IMG/VR virus record: IMGVR_UViG_3300024308_000052
Location: 1 to 30,898 of that record
DNA: 30,898 nt
Direction: 5' to 3' (one strand)
Origin: a virus
How positions within the stretch are numbered: position 1 is the stretch's first letter; each line of letters opens with the position of its first letter. Shown here piece after piece: positions 5,220 through 30,898 of the stretch. A program made the translations under genes and the position numbers. Under the pieces are notes generated by a model, which was given only the letters and a program-made list of their open reading frames with translations, ran no database searches and was not told the origin of the DNA.

Positions 5220-5636
5220 ATGAGAGGACGGAAGCCGACCGCTCCGGCCCTCAAGGTGATTGCCGGAACCGCCCGGCCGGACCGTGAGGCGCCTGACGCT
5301 CCCGAGTTCGACCTGATCGACGTGTTCCCCGACCCGCCGCAGCACCTGAACGTCAACGGGGCTGCAATGTGGAATGACCTTGGCCCCCAGCTGGTGGCAG
5401 CCAAGGTTCTCCAGACGGTGGACCTGTATGCACTGCAGCAGCTCTGCTACGCCTGGCAGGTCCAGGTGGCCAAGCAGATGGCAGGGGTGGATATCACAGC
5501 CGCTGAACAGACCGCGCTGAAGGCGCTGATGTCCGAGTTCGGTATGACGCCGGCGAGCAGACGCAAGGTGAGTTCTGGTGGCGCCGAGAAAAAGCCCGGC
5601 AACAAGTTCGGCGCCCTCCCGGCGCTCGCCAAGTAA
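5220..5636 (+). CDS. terS: terminase small subunit, P27 family
   Basis: A 138-residue protein beginning MRGRKPTAPALKVIAGTARPDR, the usual opening of P27-type small terminases. It continues with PPQHLNVNGAAMWNDLGPQLVAAKVL, DLYALQQLCYAW and the closing LMSEFGMTPASRRKV. The small subunit recognises the packaging site in DNA and directs the large subunit to it. The ribosome site is weak (GAG about ten bases upstream in AT-rich DNA). Its last 59 bases overlap the large terminase in another frame, consistent with translational coupling. Confidence 0.92.
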   Translation: MRGRKPTAPALKVIAGTARPDREAPDAPEFDLIDVFPDPPQHLNVNGAAMWNDLGPQLVAAKVLQTVDLYALQQLCYAWQVQVAKQMAGVDITAAEQTALKALMSEFGMTPASRRKVSSGGAEKKPGNKFGALPALAK

Positions 5637-7383
5637 AAAGAAGCCAGCGAAGCCGACGACTGCGGCGCGCCACCGGCGGCGCCCGAGCCCGGATCCGGCC
5701 GACTACGTGGCGGTGGCCATCGACTACGCGCAGGAAGCGGTGGAGGATCGGAAGGGCAAGGCATTCGGGTTGCTGATTCGCCAGGCGGCCAAACGCTTCT
5801 TGGACGACCTGGCCCGCGCGAAGAAGAGAGGATCAGCGTTCACGTTTTCACCCGCGCATGCAGTGCACGCCTGCGGCTTCATTGAGCTGCTGCCGCACGT
5901 TGAAGGCTCTTGGGAGACTCCCGAGATCCGCCTGCACCGGTCCCACGTATTCTTCGTGGTCCAGCTGTTTGGGTTCCGGAAGCTCGATGGCACACGTCGC
6001 TTCACCTCAGCGCTGTTTGCGGTGGCGCGCAAGAACGCCAAGTCCACATTGGCCTCAGCCATCCTGTTGTACTGCCAGTGCTGCGAGAACGAGGAAGGCG
6101 CCCAGGTCATTTCGGCGGCCACCACCTTCCCGCAGGCTTCGATCATCTTCAATGTCGCCAAGCGGATGGTGGAGAAGACGCCGGACCTTCGGGAGGCGTA
6201 TGGGCTTGAGACCTGGGCCAAGTCGATCAGCCGCATGGAGATCGGCGCCAGCTTCAAGCCCATCCACGCGAAGGCAAGCACTCAGGACGGCTTGAACCCG
6301 TCCCACGTCGGCCTTGATGAGATCCACGCGCACAAGACCCCTGACCTACTGAACGTCCTGCAGTCCGCTGCTGGCGCCCGCCGCAACCCGCTCTGGCTGT
6401 TCACCACGACCGAGGGATACACCAACCCCGGCCCCTGGGCTGAGATCCGGCAGTTCGTGAAGCAGCTGCTGGCCGGCGTGTTCAAGCACACGGCCGACCA
6501 TTACCTGGCAGTGTTCTACGCTGTCGACGAAGACGACGAGGACTTCGACGAGGCGAGTTGGCGAAAAGCCAACCCCCTGATGGAGGTAAACCCGCACCTC
6601 CTGGGAGCTATCCGAAAGGAGGCGGTCGAGGCTAAGGCCATGCCGTCCAAGCTGGCTGAGTTCCAGATCAAGCGGCTGAACCGGCCGGCCTCGGCGGCAA
6701 ACGGCTGGGTTGCACTTCGCAAGTGGGCAGCCTGCTCTGGTGAGGTCGACCTTGAAGCGCTGAAGGATGTTCCATGCTGGGGTGGGCTGGATCTGGCCAG
6801 CACCAGCGACCTGACATCGTTCCGGCTTGTCTGGCGGGTGGACGGGAAGATCATCACCTGGGGCCGCCGATGGGTTCCAGAAGAGGCAGTAAAGCAGCGT
6901 ACGGAGCGCGGCACGGTCCCATACGCGGGCTGGGTCGCGTCTGGCCACCTCGAAACGACCGAGGGCGAGGTCACCGACTACGCCCATATCGAGAGGTCGA
7001 TCCTGGACGTCGTCTCTGGTTTCAACGTTCAGTCAATCGCGTTCGATAGCTGGAATGCAACCGAGGTTGTGGGCCGGCTTCTGGCCGCCGGCGTGCCGAT
7101 GGTGCAGTTCATCCAAGGACCGAAGTCGTATCACCCGGCCATGCAGGATCTGGAGCGCGCCTACGTAGGCAAGCGCTTCGTCCATGACGGCGATCCGGTG
7201 CTGACTTGGTGCGCTTCCAACCTGGTGGCACGGCGAGACCAGAACTTGAACATGGCGCCCGACAAGAAGCGATCGAGCGAAAAGATCGATGACATGACCG
7301 CGCTGCTGATGGCTGTTGGTATCAGCATCCCCGTTGCTGAAGAAAAGAGTGACAAGAAGCTTGTCCTCATGACCCTGGGATAG
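5578..7383 (+). CDS. terL: terminase large subunit
   Basis: A 601-residue protein using a GTG start preceded by AGGTGAG, overlapping terS. The N-terminal 35 residues are basic and low-complexity. The ATPase half carries a Walker A variant ARKNAKST (150-157) and Walker B VGLDE (244-248; Asp247, Glu248), with the coupling motif LFTTTEG near 275. The nuclease half has acidic residues Asp405 (GGLDLAST), Asp490 (IAFDSW) and Asp571/572 (KIDDMTA), as in RNase H-fold terminases. It pumps DNA into the prohead through the portal and cuts the genome ends. The length is usual for this HK97-like family. Confidence 0.95.
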   Translation: MAPRKSPATSSAPSRRSPSKKKPAKPTTAARHRRRPSPDPADYVAVAIDYAQEAVEDRKGKAFGLLIRQAAKRFLDDLARAKKRGSAFTFSPAHAVHACGFIELLPHVEGSWETPEIRLHRSHVFFVVQLFGFRKLDGTRRFTSALFAVARKNAKSTLASAILLYCQCCENEEGAQVISAATTFPQASIIFNVAKRMVEKTPDLREAYGLETWAKSISRMEIGASFKPIHAKASTQDGLNPSHVGLDEIHAHKTPDLLNVLQSAAGARRNPLWLFTTTEGYTNPGPWAEIRQFVKQLLAGVFKHTADHYLAVFYAVDEDDEDFDEASWRKANPLMEVNPHLLGAIRKEAVEAKAMPSKLAEFQIKRLNRPASAANGWVALRKWAACSGEVDLEALKDVPCWGGLDLASTSDLTSFRLVWRVDGKIITWGRRWVPEEAVKQRTERGTVPYAGWVASGHLETTEGEVTDYAHIERSILDVVSGFNVQSIAFDSWNATEVVGRLLAAGVPMVQFIQGPKSYHPAMQDLERAYVGKRFVHDGDPVLTWCASNLVARRDQNLNMAPDKKRSSEKIDDMTALLMAVGISIPVAEEKSDKKLVLMTLG

Positions 7384-25415: not shown

Positions 25416-26081
25416 TCATGCGATCTGCAGCAACAGATCCTCTCGGTTGTTGCGCGGCGTGTTCACAGCCCGGCTGACCCGGTACGCCTCCATGGACGGC
25501 GTCTCGCTGGCCAGCAGCATCGCCATCGCATCGTCAGGGCTGGCTGCCATCCACTCATCGATCTGGCCGGCCTGCAGCCACACCGGCATGCGGTCGTGGA
25601 TGTCGGCCGAGACGCCGCTGCTGTCGCCGGTGATGATGGTGAAGGTGCCCAAGTTGCCGTCGGGCAGCAGGGGGCTGGTGTCCTCCCACAGGCCGGCCGC
25701 CAGCAGCGGCCCGGTGGCGTGGATGAACCACGGATCTTTCTTCCCGTCCTCGGGGCTGACCGACCACTCGTAGTAGCCGGCCATGGGGATGACGCAGCGG
25801 CGCTTCTTGAAGGCCGACCGGAAGGCTGGCTTGTTGGCCACCGTCTCGATGCGCGCATTGATGGTCGAACCCTGCAGGGCCTTGGCCTTGGCCCAGAACG
25901 GCAGCAGGCCCCAAGCCAGCCGGGTGACCTGCCGGCCTTCGCCGCGGTCCAGGATCACCGAGGCGCGCTGCGTCGGCGCCAGGTTGTAGCTGGGCAGGAT
26001 CTCGGCTAGGCCAAGGGCAAGGTCAGCCAGCCCCGGCTGGCCGAAGTCGATTACGGGGAGCTGGACGAATCGGCCGCACAT
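25416..26081 (-). CDS. SRAP-domain DNA-protein crosslink protein (YedK/HMCES-like)
   Basis: A 221-residue protein starting MCGRF, so Cys2 becomes the N-terminal catalytic residue after Met removal. It matches E. coli YedK at key positions: Asn33 (SYNLAPTQ), Glu105 (AGYYEW) and His162 (DIHDRMPV). SRAP proteins form a thiazolidine crosslink with abasic sites in single-stranded DNA and shield them during replication. In a phage it may protect replicating DNA or act on damaged or modified bases. It is transcribed against the tail operon. The first 28 bases of its 5' end region are repeated at 27355-27382. Confidence 0.93.
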   Translation of the reverse strand: MCGRFVQLPVIDFGQPGLADLALGLAEILPSYNLAPTQRASVILDRGEGRQVTRLAWGLLPFWAKAKALQGSTINARIETVANKPAFRSAFKKRRCVIPMAGYYEWSVSPEDGKKDPWFIHATGPLLAAGLWEDTSPLLPDGNLGTFTIITGDSSGVSADIHDRMPVWLQAGQIDEWMAASPDDAMAMLLASETPSMEAYRVSRAVNTPRNNREDLLLQIA

Positions 26082-26218: not shown

Positions 26219-26647
26219 ATGCCCAACAGGGCTGTTGTGTTTGTCAGCGAAGCGGTCGGCGACCTGACCATGGCGCGCCTGTCGCAGATCATGGCGGACG
26301 CGGAGCGATTCAATCGCACTGCCGGAGTTACCGGGGTCACGCTGTTTGATGGGCAGAGGTTCCTCGCTTACATGGAGGGACCGCCCGATGGCCTGGATGT
26401 GGCCTTCTCCAGAGCAGCGGGCGCCACCAGCCATTCAAGCCTGATCGAGATTGCGCGGGGGCGGGTTGGGCAGCGCAGGCTTCCCTACTGGCCTATGCGT
26501 TGCATCCCCCTGTCGCCGCCGGAGCTGGTGCAGCTGGTGCGGGCCGACTGGACTTCCTTCCTGCAGCGGGGAGGCGATCAAGTCGCCCCAGCCACCGCCA
26601 TGGAGATGCTGGTGGCACTTGTCGAACCATTCGCCGAGGCTGCTTAA
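26219..26647 (+). CDS. BLUF-fold protein lacking photoactive residues
   Basis: A 142-residue protein with GAGAGAG before ATG 26219. Residues 4-98 match the BLUF (blue light using FAD) fold: RAVVFVSEAVGDLTMARLSQIM, RFNRTAGVTGVTLFDGQRF, YMEGPPDGLDVAF and RRLPYWPM. BLUF sensors need a Tyr and a Gln that hydrogen-bond flavin; here position 8 is Phe (Tyr8 in PixD) and position 50 is Ala (Gln50 in PixD), while Asn32 is kept. Photocycling is therefore unlikely, though flavin or protein binding may remain. The C-terminal 40 residues are helical. It lies 80 bases before the Ntn-hydrolase gene on the same strand, so the two may be co-expressed. Confidence 0.8.
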   Translation: MPNRAVVFVSEAVGDLTMARLSQIMADAERFNRTAGVTGVTLFDGQRFLAYMEGPPDGLDVAFSRAAGATSHSSLIEIARGRVGQRRLPYWPMRCIPLSPPELVQLVRADWTSFLQRGGDQVAPATAMEMLVALVEPFAEAA

Positions 26648-26727
26648 GCAGCGCCGCGCTGGCGCAAGCGCAGTGGACAGAGGGTAGGGCGACGGCCATA
26701 GTCACGGCTGGCCAATGGACGTGCCCT

Positions 26728-27342
26728 ATGAGCATCCTCAACGTACTGATCAGCCGTGACCAGCTTGTCGTTGCAGTGGATACGCTCGCGGAGGATGCGC
26801 TGACAGGCGCTTACTCTGCTGGTGCAAAGTTGCTCCTGATACCGCAGCACAACGTGCTGCTGGCCACCAGAGGCGGAGCGCAGTTCTTCTTGAAGATCTA
26901 CGAGCTGGCTCTGCAGGCGAGCTTCCGGGCCGACTTCTCCATTGAGCAGCTTTCGGCCGAGATGGGGCCTGTAATGGACCAACTGTGGTTGAACTATGAG
27001 AAGGCGGCCGCAGAGGCTGACCTGCCTATCGAACAGCTGGGGACGGAGATCGTCCTGGGCGGTTGGTCGCCCAGAAGCAGCAGGATGATGGCCACGGTTT
27101 ATGCCAAGAGCGACAGCCGGCAGGCTACGTCAGTGCAGCCGATCGGTGGCCAGTTCGCATCACCCGGTGACCCTCTCAAGGGCGTGGCGCCGAGCATGCT
27201 GCAGGCCGACCTGATGGCTGCCGGACGGCTCCAGGCGGGCTACCTCAACGAGCAGATGGGCCGGCAGGTCGCCGGCGGGCGTCTGCTGATCGGGTTCTTG
27301 CAGCAGGGCCAAGCGGTGGTGAAGGATCTGGGAGCGATCTGA
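26728..27342 (+). CDS. HslV/proteasome-like Ntn hydrolase
   Basis: A 204-residue protein. I chose ATG 26728 because it makes Ser the second residue. Numbering that Ser as 1 puts Asp at 17 (LVVAVDT) and Lys at 33 (SAGAKLLLI), the same positions as Thr1, Asp17 and Lys33 of HslV and proteasome beta subunits. The following LLATRGGAQFFLKIYELAL matches the HslV 'GFAGgtaDAftlfel' helix region. Ser would replace Thr as nucleophile after Met removal. Such enzymes are self-compartmentalising peptidases; no ATPase partner gene is present here. A non-peptidase amidase role is the alternative. The ribosome site is weak. Confidence 0.65.
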   Translation: MSILNVLISRDQLVVAVDTLAEDALTGAYSAGAKLLLIPQHNVLLATRGGAQFFLKIYELALQASFRADFSIEQLSAEMGPVMDQLWLNYEKAAAEADLPIEQLGTEIVLGGWSPRSSRMMATVYAKSDSRQATSVQPIGGQFASPGDPLKGVAPSMLQADLMAAGRLQAGYLNEQMGRQVAGGRLLIGFLQQGQAVVKDLGAI

Positions 27343-27642: not shown

Positions 27643-28707
27643 TTGAACAGTTCGGCAATTCACGCGCTTCGGACGGAAGATCCGGATCGCGATTATTTGT
27701 TGGTGTCTGCGGGCATTTCCAGAAGGCTGCACACACGTTTGAGTGACTTGCTGAGCAGTCGACCGCTCAAGTCAAAAGCGACGGTCTTCCTCACGACCTA
27801 TGGCGGTGATCCGGACGGTGGATACCGCATTGCGCGGTGCCTTCGGCATTACTACAAAGATGGTCTTCGCATCGCGGTTCCCAGCTGGTGCAAGAGCGCC
27901 GGAACGCTGGTTGCAATCGCTGGTGACGAGTTAGCGATTGGTGATCGCGGCGAGTTGGGGCCTCTGGATATCCAGGTCTTCAAGGGTTCTGAGTTGCTTG
28001 AGCGCAGTTCGGGTCTAGATATCACCGAAGCCTTGGGCTTCGTATCGGACCATGTCAGATGGGGATACCACTCCATGCTGAAGGAAGCACGGCGGATGGG
28101 GCTTTCCACCAAGCTTGCGGCAGAGATGGCTGCGCACATCGGCGCGGCTGTTGCTGGTCCTCTTCTCAACCAAGTGGATCCGCTCCGGCTAGGGGAGTTG
28201 CAAAGGGCTACCCGGATTGCACATGAGTACGGGAGCAGGCTGGATGCCTATTCGAGGAATCTTAAGCCTGATGCCCTACAATCGTTGATTTCCGGCTACC
28301 CGTCGCACAGTTTTGTGATCGACCGCAAGGAAGCCAACGACCTATTTCACCGAGTCTTTCCGCTTACGGCGGCAGAGTCGGGGTTCGTCGAGAAGTTCTG
28401 GGGGGCGTTCGCTGAACCCTTGGAAGAAGACCCTGAACTAATTGATTTCTCTAAATTTCCCATTCCCACGGTAGGTACGCCCAATGAGCCCTCTCCTGAA
28501 GCTGCAAATGACAACGTCGAAGCAGGCGCAGGCCCGGATCCAGAGCACGAGCAACAGTCCGGGGACCCACAGCCAGGTGGTGAAGGCGTACGAGTTCGCT
28601 CAGGGGTCCAGGATGGTGAAAACGGAGAGGATGCAGGCGGCGGGTCCGCTGAAGCGGGCTCTGGAGGGCTCCTTCACACGTTGATGTATCGAAGCTCGGG
28701 TCGCTGA
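27643..28707 (+). CDS. SDH/ClpP-like serine protease
   Basis: A 354-residue frame starting at TTG 27643 behind AGGGGG; no in-frame ATG exists before the conserved domain. Residues about 17-180 show the ClpP/crotonase fold of the SDH protease family: TVFLTTYGGDPDGGYRIARCLRHYY (oxyanion strand and helix), then VPSWCKSAGTLVAIAGDEL with the nucleophile Ser85, and GELGPLDIQV. No signal peptide is present, so it is cytoplasmic. Residues about 265-354 are low-complexity (Gly, Glu, Pro, Asp) and coincide with an overlapping ORF in another frame, so the real end of the protein is uncertain. Third positions have less G/C than neighbours, suggesting separate acquisition. The role is unknown; defence or superinfection control is a guess. 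Confidence 0.75.
   Translation: MNSSAIHALRTEDPDRDYLLVSAGISRRLHTRLSDLLSSRPLKSKATVFLTTYGGDPDGGYRIARCLRHYYKDGLRIAVPSWCKSAGTLVAIAGDELAIGDRGELGPLDIQVFKGSELLERSSGLDITEALGFVSDHVRWGYHSMLKEARRMGLSTKLAAEMAAHIGAAVAGPLLNQVDPLRLGELQRATRIAHEYGSRLDAYSRNLKPDALQSLISGYPSHSFVIDRKEANDLFHRVFPLTAAESGFVEKFWGAFAEPLEEDPELIDFSKFPIPTVGTPNEPSPEAANDNVEAGAGPDPEHEQQSGDPQPGGEGVRVRSGVQDGENGEDAGGGSAEAGSGGLLHTLMYRSSGR
28484..28684 (+). CDS. small basic protein overlapping protease gene 3' end
   Basis: A 66-residue ORF in the +1 frame within the protease gene tail, starting at ATG 28484 with TAGG upstream. By eye, nearly 90% of its third codon positions are G or C, much more than the protease frame over the same DNA, which reads as Gly/Glu-rich low complexity. 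The product is basic and helical (LKLQMTTSKQAQARIQS, VVKAYEFAQGSRMVKTERMQAAGPLKRALEGSF). It ends 34 bases before the terminator stem. It is likely a real gene, with the protease frame running on by chance over it. Function is unknown. Confidence 0.6.
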   Translation: MSPLLKLQMTTSKQAQARIQSTSNSPGTHSQVVKAYEFAQGSRMVKTERMQAAGPLKRALEGSFTR

Positions 28708-28902: not shown

Positions 28903-29403
28903 ATGTATTCCTCCCACGGCTTTCGCACCGCCCCAATTCCCTCTGGCTGGGTCCAGACCGGTGAGCGCTGGGCGCTCTGGTACAACGGCCGGGAAACGGC
29001 GAACATCACGCTCGATGGCGGTCCTGGCGTTCGGCTGTGGATGGAAGGCCAGAAGATGTGGCACACCAAGGAAGCGCGCGCCGCCAACGTCCGGCAGGCG
29101 AAGCGCTACGCGGAGCGCTGGTGCGCGGCCAGGCTGTATCCCGACCTGCCTCTGCGTCAGGCTGTCGCCCGGCTGACCGATAGCACGCCGATCCAGCCGC
29201 CGCCGCCACTGCCAGGTCTGCCGCCAACCCGCGAGCAGCAGCAACAGGCTCGGCGCCTGGCAGAGGCTGGGGCGAAGGAGATCGAGCGGATCAAGGAAGC
29301 GCTTGAACCGCGCCGACCTCCGAAGGAGACCAAGCCCCGCCCGAAGGACGCGCGCAAGGCGTGGATGAGGGCAGGGCTGCAGCAGATGCGCCGCGACGTG
29401 TAG
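28903..29403 (+). CDS. hypothetical accessory protein
   Basis: A 166-residue protein starting at ATG 28903. Residues about 15-85 form a small beta-rich domain (GWVQTGERWALWYNGRETANITL, VRLWMEGQKMWHTKEARAANVRQAKRYAERWCAARLY is the strand-helix part). A Pro-rich linker follows (IQPPPPLPGLPPTREQ), then a long basic helix (ARRLAEAGAKEIERIKEAL) and a Lys/Arg-rich end. It faces the integrase gene with only three bases between their stops and no terminator. It has its own promoter candidate, so it may be expressed in the lysogen. No family is recognised. Confidence 0.65.
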   Translation: MYSSHGFRTAPIPSGWVQTGERWALWYNGRETANITLDGGPGVRLWMEGQKMWHTKEARAANVRQAKRYAERWCAARLYPDLPLRQAVARLTDSTPIQPPPPLPGLPPTREQQQQARRLAEAGAKEIERIKEALEPRRPPKETKPRPKDARKAWMRAGLQQMRRDV

Positions 29404-29406
29404 GCA

Positions 29407-30615
29407 TCAAGCAACCCGCAGCTGCACCACGTTGCCGTCGCGCAGCCTATCCAAGTAGTCCGCCCACTCCTGCATCATCCGAACCCGCTCATCGAGGTGG
29501 GTCGTGCGGTTGTAGGCACGGCCGTTCAGATCCTTCACTTCATGGGCCAGCTGGTGCTCGATGATGTCGGGGCGGAACTTCAGTACCTCGTCCAGGATGG
29601 TGCGCGCTGTCGCGCGGAAGCCGTGCCCAGTGACCGTGCCCGACTCGAACCCCATTCTGCGCAGAGCCGCAGTCACTGCGTTCTCTGACATCGGCCGTGC
29701 TTTGGAACGAGCCGAGGGGAAGACGTACTTTCCCCGTCCGGTGAGCGGCTTGATTTCCTCAAGGATCGCGAGAGCCTGCACCGACAGCGGGACAATGTGC
29801 GGTCGGCGCATCTTCATCCTTCCCTTGGGGATCGTCCATATCCGCTCTTCAAGGTCGAATTCTGCCCACTCGGCCTGTCGTAGCTCGCCAGGACGCAGAA
29901 ACAGCATTGGAGCGAGGCGGAGGGCCATCCGAACCGTCAGCGTTCCAGAGTAGCCATACATAGCGCGCAGCAGGGGCGCCAGTTCGACGGGCTCGGTAAC
30001 CGCGGCGTAGTGATTCTCTGGCGAGGGGGTAAGAGCGCCGCGCAGGTCCGCAACCGGGTCGCGCTTCGCCCTGCCGGTGGCGATGGCGTACCTCATCACC
30101 TGGCTGCAGTTCTGCATGATTCGGTGCGCCGATTCGATGGCGCCGCGGGCCTCAACGCGCCGAGCGACCGACAGGAAATCCGTCGCTTCCAACTCGGCCG
30201 CCGGTCGGCTTCCGACCCACGGGAACACGTCATTGGCGAACCACGCTTTGACCTTGATGCGGTACTTCGGCACCCAATCGCGCTTGGCCAGCCATTCCCG
30301 CGCAATGACCTCGAACGTGTTGGCTCCCAGTTCCGCCCGAGCCACGGCTGCCGCCTTCTTGTGCTCGCCTGGATCCACCCCGCGCGCCAGCAGCTGCCGC
30401 GCGTCGTCCCGCCGCTGCCGGGCGAGAGCCAGGGTCACGTCTGGGTATACGCCCAATGCGAGCCGCTTCTCCTTTCCGTCGAAGCGATACTTCAGCCGCC
30501 ACCAGCGGCTGTCCTTGGGCGAGATCTCCAAGTACAGACCGCCGCCATCGAAGATCTTCTGCGTGCGGTCCGTTGCTTTGGCCTTGCGAATGGCCAGATC
30601 GGTCAGTGGGGGCAT
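29407..30615 (-). CDS. int: phage integrase, tyrosine recombinase (DUF4102-type arm domain)
   Basis: A 402-residue protein. I chose ATG at 30615 because it gives MPPLTDLAIRKAKATDRTQKIFDGGGLYL, the standard start of P4-like integrases; the frame is open further upstream into the tmRNA flank. The arm-binding domain spans 1-100, the core-binding domain about 101-195, and the catalytic domain about 205-390. Catalytic residues are Arg241 (FLRPGEL), His331 and Arg334 (HGFR), His358 (HQLAHE) and the nucleophile Tyr368 (AYNR). It catalyses integration at the adjacent tmRNA 3' end, a common target of this family. Transcription runs away from the tmRNA and into the prophage. Confidence 0.95.
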   Translation of the reverse strand: MPPLTDLAIRKAKATDRTQKIFDGGGLYLEISPKDSRWWRLKYRFDGKEKRLALGVYPDVTLALARQRRDDARQLLARGVDPGEHKKAAAVARAELGANTFEVIAREWLAKRDWVPKYRIKVKAWFANDVFPWVGSRPAAELEATDFLSVARRVEARGAIESAHRIMQNCSQVMRYAIATGRAKRDPVADLRGALTPSPENHYAAVTEPVELAPLLRAMYGYSGTLTVRMALRLAPMLFLRPGELRQAEWAEFDLEERIWTIPKGRMKMRRPHIVPLSVQALAILEEIKPLTGRGKYVFPSARSKARPMSENAVTAALRRMGFESGTVTGHGFRATARTILDEVLKFRPDIIEHQLAHEVKDLNGRAYNRTTHLDERVRMMQEWADYLDRLRDGNVVQLRVA

Positions 30616-30703
30616 GTGTCTTTCAGGTCCGGGCGGATGCCCCAAAATATGCCCCCACCGTCTCACGGCCTGCAACGAACTGAAGCGAACTAGGCCGGAA
30701 AGT
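30616..30703. promoter_or_regulatory. integrase leader with ATGCCCC repeats, part of att region
   Basis: An 88-base stretch between integrase start and tmRNA terminator. ATGCCCC occurs at 30637-30643 and ATGCCCCC at 30649-30656, spaced 12 bases apart, with the inverse GGGGGCAT at 30608-30615 spanning the integrase start codon. Repeats of this kind beside the start codon suit arm-type binding by integrase and self-regulation. The exact crossover cannot be read because the other att copy is outside the window. Confidence 0.5.
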
Positions 30704-30746
30704 AAAAAAGCCCGGAAACCCTTGTGATGCGGGGGTTTCCGGGCTT
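30704..30746 (-). terminator. tmRNA terminator
   Basis: Read on the minus strand, a 14-bp stem AAGCCCGGAAACCC/GGGTTTCCGGGCTT with an 11-base loop is followed by a T6 run (A run at 30704-30709). It lies 25 bases past the tmRNA 3' end and shields the integrase region from ssrA transcription. It may be host DNA or carried in by the prophage. Confidence 0.85.
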
Positions 30747-30771
30747 CTCCGGTCCTTGACGGACCGTTCGT

Positions 30772-30898
30772 TGGTGGAGGTGGGCGGAATTGAACCGCCG
30801 TCCGAAGGCACTCCATCCCCAGCACTACATGCTTAGCTCACCGTTGAATCTCATCCCCGAGCAGCACGGTGTGCAAAGCGCACCCGGGAACCAGCCTG
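30772..30898 (-). ncRNA. ssrA: tmRNA, 3' part (partial)
   Basis: On the minus strand the sequence ends with the tRNA-like domain: the T arm region GACGGCGGTTCAATTCCGCC and the acceptor ending in CCA (plus-strand TGG at 30772-30774). Upstream are the features of the tmRNA 3' half (AAGCATGTAGTGCTGGGGAT and GTGCCTTCGGAC). tmRNA rescues stalled ribosomes. Only the last 127 bases are in the window; the tag-coding part and 5' end lie beyond the edge. Integration next to the 3' end keeps the gene functional. Confidence 0.93.

What the first reader, a model, noticed from the sequence alone, without database searches (positions are those of the whole stretch)
26728..27342. Phage HslV/proteasome-like hydrolase with Ser1-Asp17-Lys33 in exact register
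With Met removed, the nucleophile position is Ser, and Asp17 and Lys33 fall on the HslV/proteasome catalytic numbers. A stand-alone proteasome-type protein without an ATPase in a phage accessory zone, with Ser instead of Thr, is unusual. It may degrade host or competing phage proteins, or be an Anbu-like assembly.
Basis: partly seen in the sequence, partly recalled or inferred. Interest (0 to 1): 0.72.

Follow-up and report, generated by a model that had tools for sequence, protein, structure and literature searches.

The report
Prophage proteasome-like enzyme with serine nucleophile
Many Stenotrophomonas prophages carry a small stand-alone gene, with its own promoter, for a protein predicted to fold like a proteasome subunit and to cut with an exposed first serine; such phage proteins are known in outline, but this group is unstudied and its targets are unknown.

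Summary
The ORF at 26728-27342 gives 204 residues; without Met, Ser1, Asp17 and Lys33 are exactly in place. Among 94 distinct full-length relatives one deviates, by a one-codon deletion; a 33% singleton outside that set has Arg for Lys33. AlphaFold models of the window protein (pLDDT 86) and a 55% relative (pLDDT 90) match 20S proteasome chains and Anbu over about 170-180 residues (Z 16-18.5), Ser1 on their residue 1. So it is a proteasome-type Ntn hydrolase by fold and register, though Pfam, NCBIfam and PDB sequence searches find nothing. The only family hit is a PHROG probably mislabelled 'terminase'. The gene is cargo of Stenotrophomonas prophages and islands (matches in 36 of 81 genus genomes, 2 of 369 class genomes), with its own promoter (50 of 57 non-redundant copies; control 0 of 57) and dN/dS near 0.1. 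The window's island holds no ATPase. One helix of the H3/H4 pair is reduced, so a canonical double ring is doubtful. Ser1 and phage carriage have precedents (BPH, PPH, AAH). Best reading: an ATP-independent Ser-nucleophile hydrolase made in lysogens, substrate unknown. Two island copies lie beside anti-phage defence genes. Identity with the 2021 cluster GPH could not be tested.

The parts
26728..27342 (+). CDS of the Ser-type proteasome-like Ntn hydrolase, 204 aa (P0001)
   Evidence: models (this protein; 55% relative)
26731..26733 (+). Ser1 codon, predicted nucleophile after Met removal
   Evidence: 116 of 116 full-length hits; first aligned pair is model residue 2 with chain residue 1 in many rows
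26779..26781 (+). Asp17 codon
   Evidence: 115 of 116 hits
26827..26829 (+). Lys33 codon
   Evidence: 115 of 116 hits; Arg in the divergent singleton P0003
26869..26874 (+). Arg47-Gly48 codons; Gly48 is the likely counterpart of the oxyanion-hole Gly47 of the proteasome (one-residue offset by my own alignment)
   Evidence: each 115 of 116 hits; both invariant in 84 of 84 distinct 204-aa proteins
26674..26702 (+). own sigma70-like promoter: TGGACA, 17 nt, CATAGT
   Evidence: at least 9 of 12 matches to TAGACA-N16-19-GATAGT in 50 of 57 non-redundant copies, 0 of 57 control stretches
26219..26647 (+). neighbour: BLUF-domain protein (Pfam PF04940)
   Evidence: a match in 43 of 104 stretches, 40 of them 100 aa or longer
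25416..26081 (-). neighbour: SRAP / SOS-response-associated peptidase (PF02586)
   Evidence: a match in 38 of 104 stretches, 22 of them 150 aa or longer
27643..28707 (+). neighbour: ClpP-like SDH-type protease homologue (PF01972 below its cut-off; phrog_21683)
   Evidence: only in the window and its near-copy L002 among 104 stretches
28903..29403 (+). neighbour: conserved protein of phrog_26768
   Evidence: a match in 61 of 104 stretches
29407..30825 (-). tyrosine integrase, right end of the prophage

Best explanation
An autonomous prophage cargo gene (moron) for a proteasome-type Ntn hydrolase. Shown: the conserved reading frame, the triad register, a confident predicted proteasome-like fold, a conserved promoter-like sequence of its own, purifying selection, and wide spread in Stenotrophomonas prophages and islands. 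Inferred from the family: host methionine aminopeptidase removes Met before Ser; the hydroxyl of Ser1, activated by its own amino group with Lys33 and Asp17, attacks an amide bond; Gly48 stabilises the intermediate. Inferred with less certainty: it works without an ATPase on short or unfolded peptides, alone or in a small or open assembly rather than a canonical double ring, and is made in the lysogen from its own promoter, so it serves the lysogen or the resident prophage rather than virion building.
For: Fold: window model pLDDT 86.4, pTM 0.83; Foldseek PDB best E 1.2e-7, all 50 rows shown are proteasome or Anbu chains; VIA-align Z 16.8, rmsd 2.8, 172 aligned to a chain of the human 20S proteasome; L076 model pLDDT 90.0, pTM 0.87, Z 18.5, rmsd 2.4, 180 aligned to Anbu 5nyw, tied with 20S chains at Z 18. 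Conservation. A distant relative has Thr1, Asp17 and Lys33 in exact register (L189), another Ser1, Asp17 and an aligned Lys after an 18-residue insert (P0002). Promoter 50 of 57 against 0 of 57 control stretches and 5 of 285 shuffles. Median dN/dS 0.10 on 42 pairs. Context. Met removal and Ser1 in BPH: PMC5777263, passages.
Against: No direct sequence similarity: Pfam 0 hits for the window protein and no Proteasome hit in any of 28 alignment members, NCBIfam, PDB. Own profile searches against HslV, Anbu and BPH-like sets give nothing significant; hhalign to three BPH-like sequences gives E 0.003, 0.009 and 0.017 over residues 1-55 or 1-56, at probabilities of only 3-10%. A divergent singleton has Arg for Lys33 and Ser for Gly48. 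Several copies are broken, so the gene is dispensable. No experiment shows activity. The promoter consensus was drawn from the same sequences that were scored.
Confidence: 0.65

Rival explanations
1. A specific Ntn enzyme that is not a general peptidase: a small-molecule amidase or a peptide ligase like connectase, acting as a monomer.
For: Connectase has the same fold and triad but is a monomeric ligase (PMC8665760, parts 1-4 of 6 read). The models show only one full helix of the H3/H4 pair, which mediates ring-ring contacts. An invariant Arg47 sits next to the likely oxyanion Gly.
Against: H1 and H2, absent in connectase, are present here (helices 51-64/65 and 72-96); no long insertion between the third and fourth strands in the window protein.
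Confidence: 0.2
2. Filing rival: this is the cluster GPH (gammaproteobacterial proteasome homologue) or another of the 22 groups of Fuchs et al. 2021, already listed though uncharacterised.
For: That survey found many low-similarity bacterial and phage groups; GPH is gammaproteobacterial and connected to distant group II clusters.
Against: GPH has 159 sequences at 90% and 97 at 70% identity, and no phage mark in Table 1 as I read its columns; my sample, which is not exhaustive, has 49 and 10 clusters. The paper says the sole exceptions to having H1-H4 are connectase and PPH/RPC; here one of H3/H4 is reduced. Stenotrophomonas and Xanthomon do not occur in its main text.
Confidence: 0.2
3. A catalytically dead member of the fold that binds rather than cuts.
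For: P0003 shows that Lys33 and Gly48 can be lost. Residues at the places of Ser129, Asp166 and Ser169 of the proteasome (recalled, my own alignment) do not look kept: position 145 (Met numbering) is Ser in 74 and Ala in 10 of 84, position 182 is Ala in 84 of 84.
Against: Ser1, Asp17, Lys33 and Gly48 invariant in 84 of 84 distinct 204-aa proteins, with median dN/dS 0.08 in the part that holds them.
Confidence: 0.07
4. A terminase large subunit, as the only PHROG match is labelled.
For: phrog_13702 matches at E 3.2e-5 (window protein) to 2.3e-7 (L076) and carries that label.
Against: The window has its own terminase large subunit at 5578-7383 (phrog_9, E 5e-151); the protein is 204 aa with an Ntn model; phrog_13702 also finds L189, with Thr1-Asp17-Lys33, and, weakly, L133, which passes the Pfam Proteasome cut-off.
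Confidence: 0.01

Closest known systems
BPH (betaproteobacterial proteasome homologue), PMC5777263
   Same: Stand-alone, no propeptide, Met removal exposes residue 1, Ser1 outside Betaproteobacteria, Asp17, no known ATPase partner (passages)
   Different: No significant sequence similarity (best hhalign E 0.003, residues 1-55, probability 10%); Lys at 33, not 37; one helix of H3/H4 reduced in the models; prophage cargo
PPH and AAH, the phage-carried proteasome homologues of PMC8665760
   Same: Proteasome-like proteins of phages and prophages, function unknown
   Different: PPH has about 140 residues and lacks H2; this has 204 and a long second helix. AAH sequences were not at hand
Anbu
   Same: Closest single PDB match of the better model, Z 18.5, tied with 20S chains
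   Different: No C-terminal helix H5; Ser1 where Anbu has Thr1 (recalled; my 13 Anbu sequences were cut at a Thr by my own pattern); no profile similarity
HslV
   Same: Fold, and Asp17 and Lys33 in the same register
   Different: No significant profile similarity; no ATPase in the window's island; one Stenotrophomonas host (G001) has chromosomal HslV and Anbu of its own, labels assigned by me

Membership tests
proteasome-like Ntn hydrolases | beta-sheet sandwich fold of the proteasome subunit | tested here: met
   (predicted structure, not solved)
proteasome-like Ntn hydrolases | Thr/Ser1, Asp17, Lys33 and an oxyanion Gly | tested here: met
   Gly48 with a one-residue offset by my alignment; the singleton P0003 departs
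proteasome-like Ntn hydrolases | recognised by the Pfam Proteasome profile PF00227 | tested here: not met
   no Proteasome hit for any of 28 alignment members, the window protein included; the 2021 survey admits members of very low similarity
proteasome-like Ntn hydrolases | free N-terminal nucleophile and hydrolase activity | not testable with these tools
   needs mass spectrometry and assay
HslV | sequence family | tested here: not met
   no HslV hit in either direction of profile search; hhalign E 0.12-0.23
HslV | HslU ATPase partner | tested here: inconclusive
   none among the window's island proteins nor among 10 neighbours in other loci scanned with Pfam; most neighbours were not annotated, and a host HslU could serve
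Anbu | C-terminal helix H5 forming a coiled coil | tested here: not met
   both models end in strand 195-203
PPH | about 140 residues, lacks helix H2 | tested here: not met
   204 aa, helices 51-64/65 and 72-96; criteria from PMC8665760
BPH | sequence family | tested here: inconclusive
   hhalign E 0.003, 0.009 and 0.017 against 3 BPH-like sequences, negatives 0.056-0.87; hhalign also failed on HslV against Anbu (0.087), so it is insensitive here
GPH | sequence cluster around WP_152342571.1 | not testable with these tools
   sequence not at hand; cluster sizes differ
AAH | sequence cluster around WP_035979212 | not testable with these tools
   sequence not at hand
phage moron (recalled term) | own promoter and independence from the neighbouring phage genes | tested here: met
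   promoter by sequence only, and no terminator was found beside the gene

The most novel reading that the evidence does not exclude
A proteasome-fold enzyme that has given up the canonical double ring and works as a specific, ATP-free Ser-nucleophile peptidase or ligase, made from its own promoter and used in warfare between phages in Stenotrophomonas: a defence or superinfection-exclusion protein that prophages and integrase-borne defence islands (one copy beside Kiwa genes, one beside a Thoeris-type TIR gene) carry and diversify side by side in one host.
Probability: 0.2. Interest if true: 0.78.

Novelty: new variant of a known kind. Interest (0 to 1): 0.48.

Why it matters
Proteasome relatives in phages were catalogued in 2021 without a function. 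This is a compact, testable case: a small protein, a predicted nucleophile, a defined promoter-like site, many natural variants (intact, broken, and one with altered catalytic residues), and a genus in which 36 of 81 genomes carry matches, some of them fragments. It would show what a proteasome subunit can do without ring partners or an ATPase, and what temperate phages gain from it. It also suggests correcting a misleading PHROG label.

Tried and rejected
Rejected: HslV or Anbu proper, terminase, the alternative upstream start (TTG 26500), a conserved 5'UTR hairpin (good stems in some copies, none in others), and a conserved pair with the ClpP-like neighbour (only the window and its near-copy). 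Nothing found: tblastn in 50,697 phage records with the window protein, P0002, L133, L189 and an L188 read-through; tblastn in 72,556 plasmid records with the window protein alone; megablast of window 1-24900 against phages; IMG/VR scans with P0002, L189 and P0003 as single queries. The phage search itself works: the tail protein finds 225 records. PADLOC: 0 hits for 5 island proteins of the window. In one search hhalign did not connect HslV and Anbu, so its negatives mean little. In one search my decoy filter left four true family members in both the decoy list and the chance test; I discount them. phrog_13702 also hit two 916-925 aa frames that look like topoisomerase I (my reading) at E 7e-4 to 8e-4, so its link to L133 (E 9.5e-4) is weak. 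The L188 hit (E 9.9e-19) is a decayed gene with four stops and was not used further. On checking I changed three things: the claim of no ATPase is now limited to the proteins that were scanned; the Thr1 of Anbu is marked as recalled, because my own pattern imposed it; and the probability of the novel reading went from 0.15 to 0.2 after searches found defence genes beside two copies. Those neighbours were picked by eye, so this is no test of enrichment.

Full report
What is there. The window is a 30,898-base virus record, by its genes a temperate siphophage: antiterminator, terminase, major head, portal, tail, tape measure and tail fibre genes on the plus strand and an integrase at the right end. 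Between the tail fibre and the integrase lies an island of SRAP (minus strand), BLUF, the gene in question, a ClpP-like SDH-type protease homologue and a conserved protein of phrog_26768. The gene at 26728-27342 encodes 204 residues with Ser1, Asp17 and Lys33 after Met removal.

Chance and conservation. Of 2513 mechanically called ORFs of 100 aa or more from the collected stretches, four had [S/T/C]1-Asp17-Lys33, and all four were family members that my text filter missed. IMG/VR gave 18, then 79, then 57 loci, overlapping. The bacterial genome scan gave 23 loci, 21 titled Stenotrophomonas and two '[Pseudomonas] hibiscicola' (recalled to belong to Stenotrophomonas). Among 116 full-length hits, 94 distinct proteins, Ser1 is kept in 116 and Asp17, Lys33, Arg47 and Gly48 each in 115. 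The exception has lost one codon and its promoter. In 84 of 84 distinct proteins of 204 aa all five are invariant. Against: a 33% singleton (P0003), found later and not in those counts, keeps Ser1 and Asp17 but has Arg at the Lys and Ser at the Gly position.

Fold. AlphaFold gave pLDDT 86.4 for the window protein and 90.0 for L076, 55% identical. VIA-align 2 put both on 20S proteasome chains and Anbu: Z 16.8, rmsd 2.8, 172 aligned for the first, and Z 18.5, rmsd 2.4, 180 aligned to Anbu for the second, rows within 1 being tied. In many rows the first aligned pair is model residue 2 with chain residue 1, so the register came out without being imposed. Both models have helices at 51-64/65, 72-96 and 159-177; the second adds one turn at 147-150. 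The 2021 survey describes four helices, H1-H4, with H3/H4 making ring-ring contacts; one of that pair is reduced here. This is from models, and its consequence for assembly is inference.

Sequence relatives. No Pfam, NCBIfam or PDB sequence match is meaningful. phrog_13702 matches from residue 1 (E 3.2e-5 for the window protein; 2.3e-7 for L076). The same PHROG finds L189 in another genome of the phylum, with Thr1-Asp17-Lys33 in exact register, and, at the edge of significance, L133, a protein that passes the Pfam Proteasome cut-off. P0002 (27-28% identical) keeps Ser1 and Asp17 and an aligned Lys after an 18-residue insert. Direct profile comparison with HslV and Anbu fails; a small BPH-like set gives E 0.003, 0.009 and 0.017 over residues 1-55 or 1-56, against 0.056-0.87 for negatives, at probabilities of 3-10%. 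I regard homology to the proteasome family as supported by fold plus register, not by sequence statistics.

Distribution and mobility. 36 of 81 genomes of the genus have a match, some of them fragments only, 10 of 250 of the order (G186 through the divergent P0002), and 2 of 369 of the class, G001 itself and G026, which was also in the genus set. Of 104 stretches with the gene, 61 hold a phrog_26768 relative, 43 a BLUF match, 38 an SRAP match (22 of 150 aa or more), 22 an integrase match and 2 the ClpP-like gene (many flanks are short, so these are lower bounds, and L008 and L009 come from one contig). BLUF lies to the left of the gene in 32 and to the right in 11, so the genes travel as separate cassettes. 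Five genomes hold two full-length copies (G002, G043, G217, G1037, G1039). Broken copies exist: truncations, frameshifts, a copy with a stop, and five genomes with the same break at codons 54/55.

Copies outside obvious prophages. I listed the ORFs around 11 copies and scanned neighbours picked by eye. Near L098's copy lies a DUF6538 integrase, and ORFs that begin alike lie near the copies of L096 and L097. L097 has KwaA and KwaB of the Kiwa defence system, ending about 500 bases before the gene (PADLOC E 9.6e-74 and 7.5e-127), and L096 has a ThsB-type TIR protein downstream (E 1.3e-139); L094 has TniQ and L089 a radical SAM protein. This places some copies in defence-bearing islands, but it is not a test of enrichment. 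In the window's own island PADLOC finds nothing.

Expression. At least 9 of 12 matches to TAGACA-N16-19-GATAGT occur before the ATG in 50 of 57 non-redundant copies, with the second hexamer starting at -30 to -33 in 48 of the 50; in 0 of 57 control stretches further upstream and in 5 of 285 shuffles, although the sequences around it differ. The consensus was taken from the same sequences, so the figures are optimistic. Only 2 of 57 have a Shine-Dalgarno-like motif. Median dN/dS is 0.10 over 42 pairs (of 700 sampled, those 80-98.5% identical), 0.081 in residues 2-128 and 0.145 in 129-180.

Function. The family pattern predicts Met removal and Ser1 attack. In BPH, Met removal, inhibitor adducts at residue 1 and Ser1 outside Betaproteobacteria are reported (PMC5777263, passages). 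PMC8665760 (parts 1-4 of 6 and passages) describes PPH and AAH in phages, gives the triad as Thr1/Ser1, Asp17, Lys33, and reports no AAA+ partner and no function. PMC7289586 lists a 'Proteasome-like' CDS in a marine myovirus (one passage). None of the papers listed by searches, which cover open-licence PMC only and of which I saw listings, is about this Stenotrophomonas family by title or shown abstract. I commit to an ATP-independent Ser-nucleophile hydrolase made in lysogens, and leave the substrate open.

Verdict. A real, conserved phage-cargo group of the proteasome-like family, with no study of it found; in my judgement a new variant of a known kind, with the caveat that it may coincide with a listed cluster.

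Noticed in passing
L193:900-9255 (G026:C86); same break in G993, G1037, G1012, G1039: A homologue is split at codons 54/55 in five genomes, by about 8.4 kb in three and 18.8 kb in two. The one read (G026) has 38-bp inverted ends, a Tn3-type transposase, a resolvase, a MerR regulator and a flavoprotein with a heavy-metal domain, probably a mercury-resistance transposon.
   Followed up: partly
L097:2862-4507 and L096:6171-7184: Kiwa genes (KwaA, KwaB) just upstream of one copy and a ThsB-type TIR gene downstream of another, in integrase-bearing islands.
   Followed up: partly
window 26219-26647 and 28903-29403, and relatives: The BLUF gene and the phrog_26768 gene each have conserved upstream sequence, and many copies of both share a GAACGATTCA / TGAATCGTTC-like motif in opposite orientation, perhaps a common operator.
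   Followed up: no
window 27643-28707: ClpP/SDH-like protease homologue directly downstream, found beside the gene only in the window and its near-copy L002.
   Followed up: partly
L195:504-1115 (P0003): Divergent singleton homologue with Arg at the Lys33 position and Ser at the Gly48 position, a natural candidate for an inactive form.
   Followed up: partly
phrog_13702 (matches window 26728-27342): PHROG labelled 'terminase large subunit' seems to be a proteasome-like family; the label is probably wrong.
   Followed up: partly
L189:1465-2109 (G636): A Thr1-Asp17-Lys33 relative in another genome of the phylum; no relative of it was found in the phage and IMG/VR searches.
   Followed up: partly
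window 25416-26081: SRAP protein begins Met-Cys, so it too would need Met removal to expose its nucleophile (recalled mechanism): two such genes in one island.
   Followed up: no
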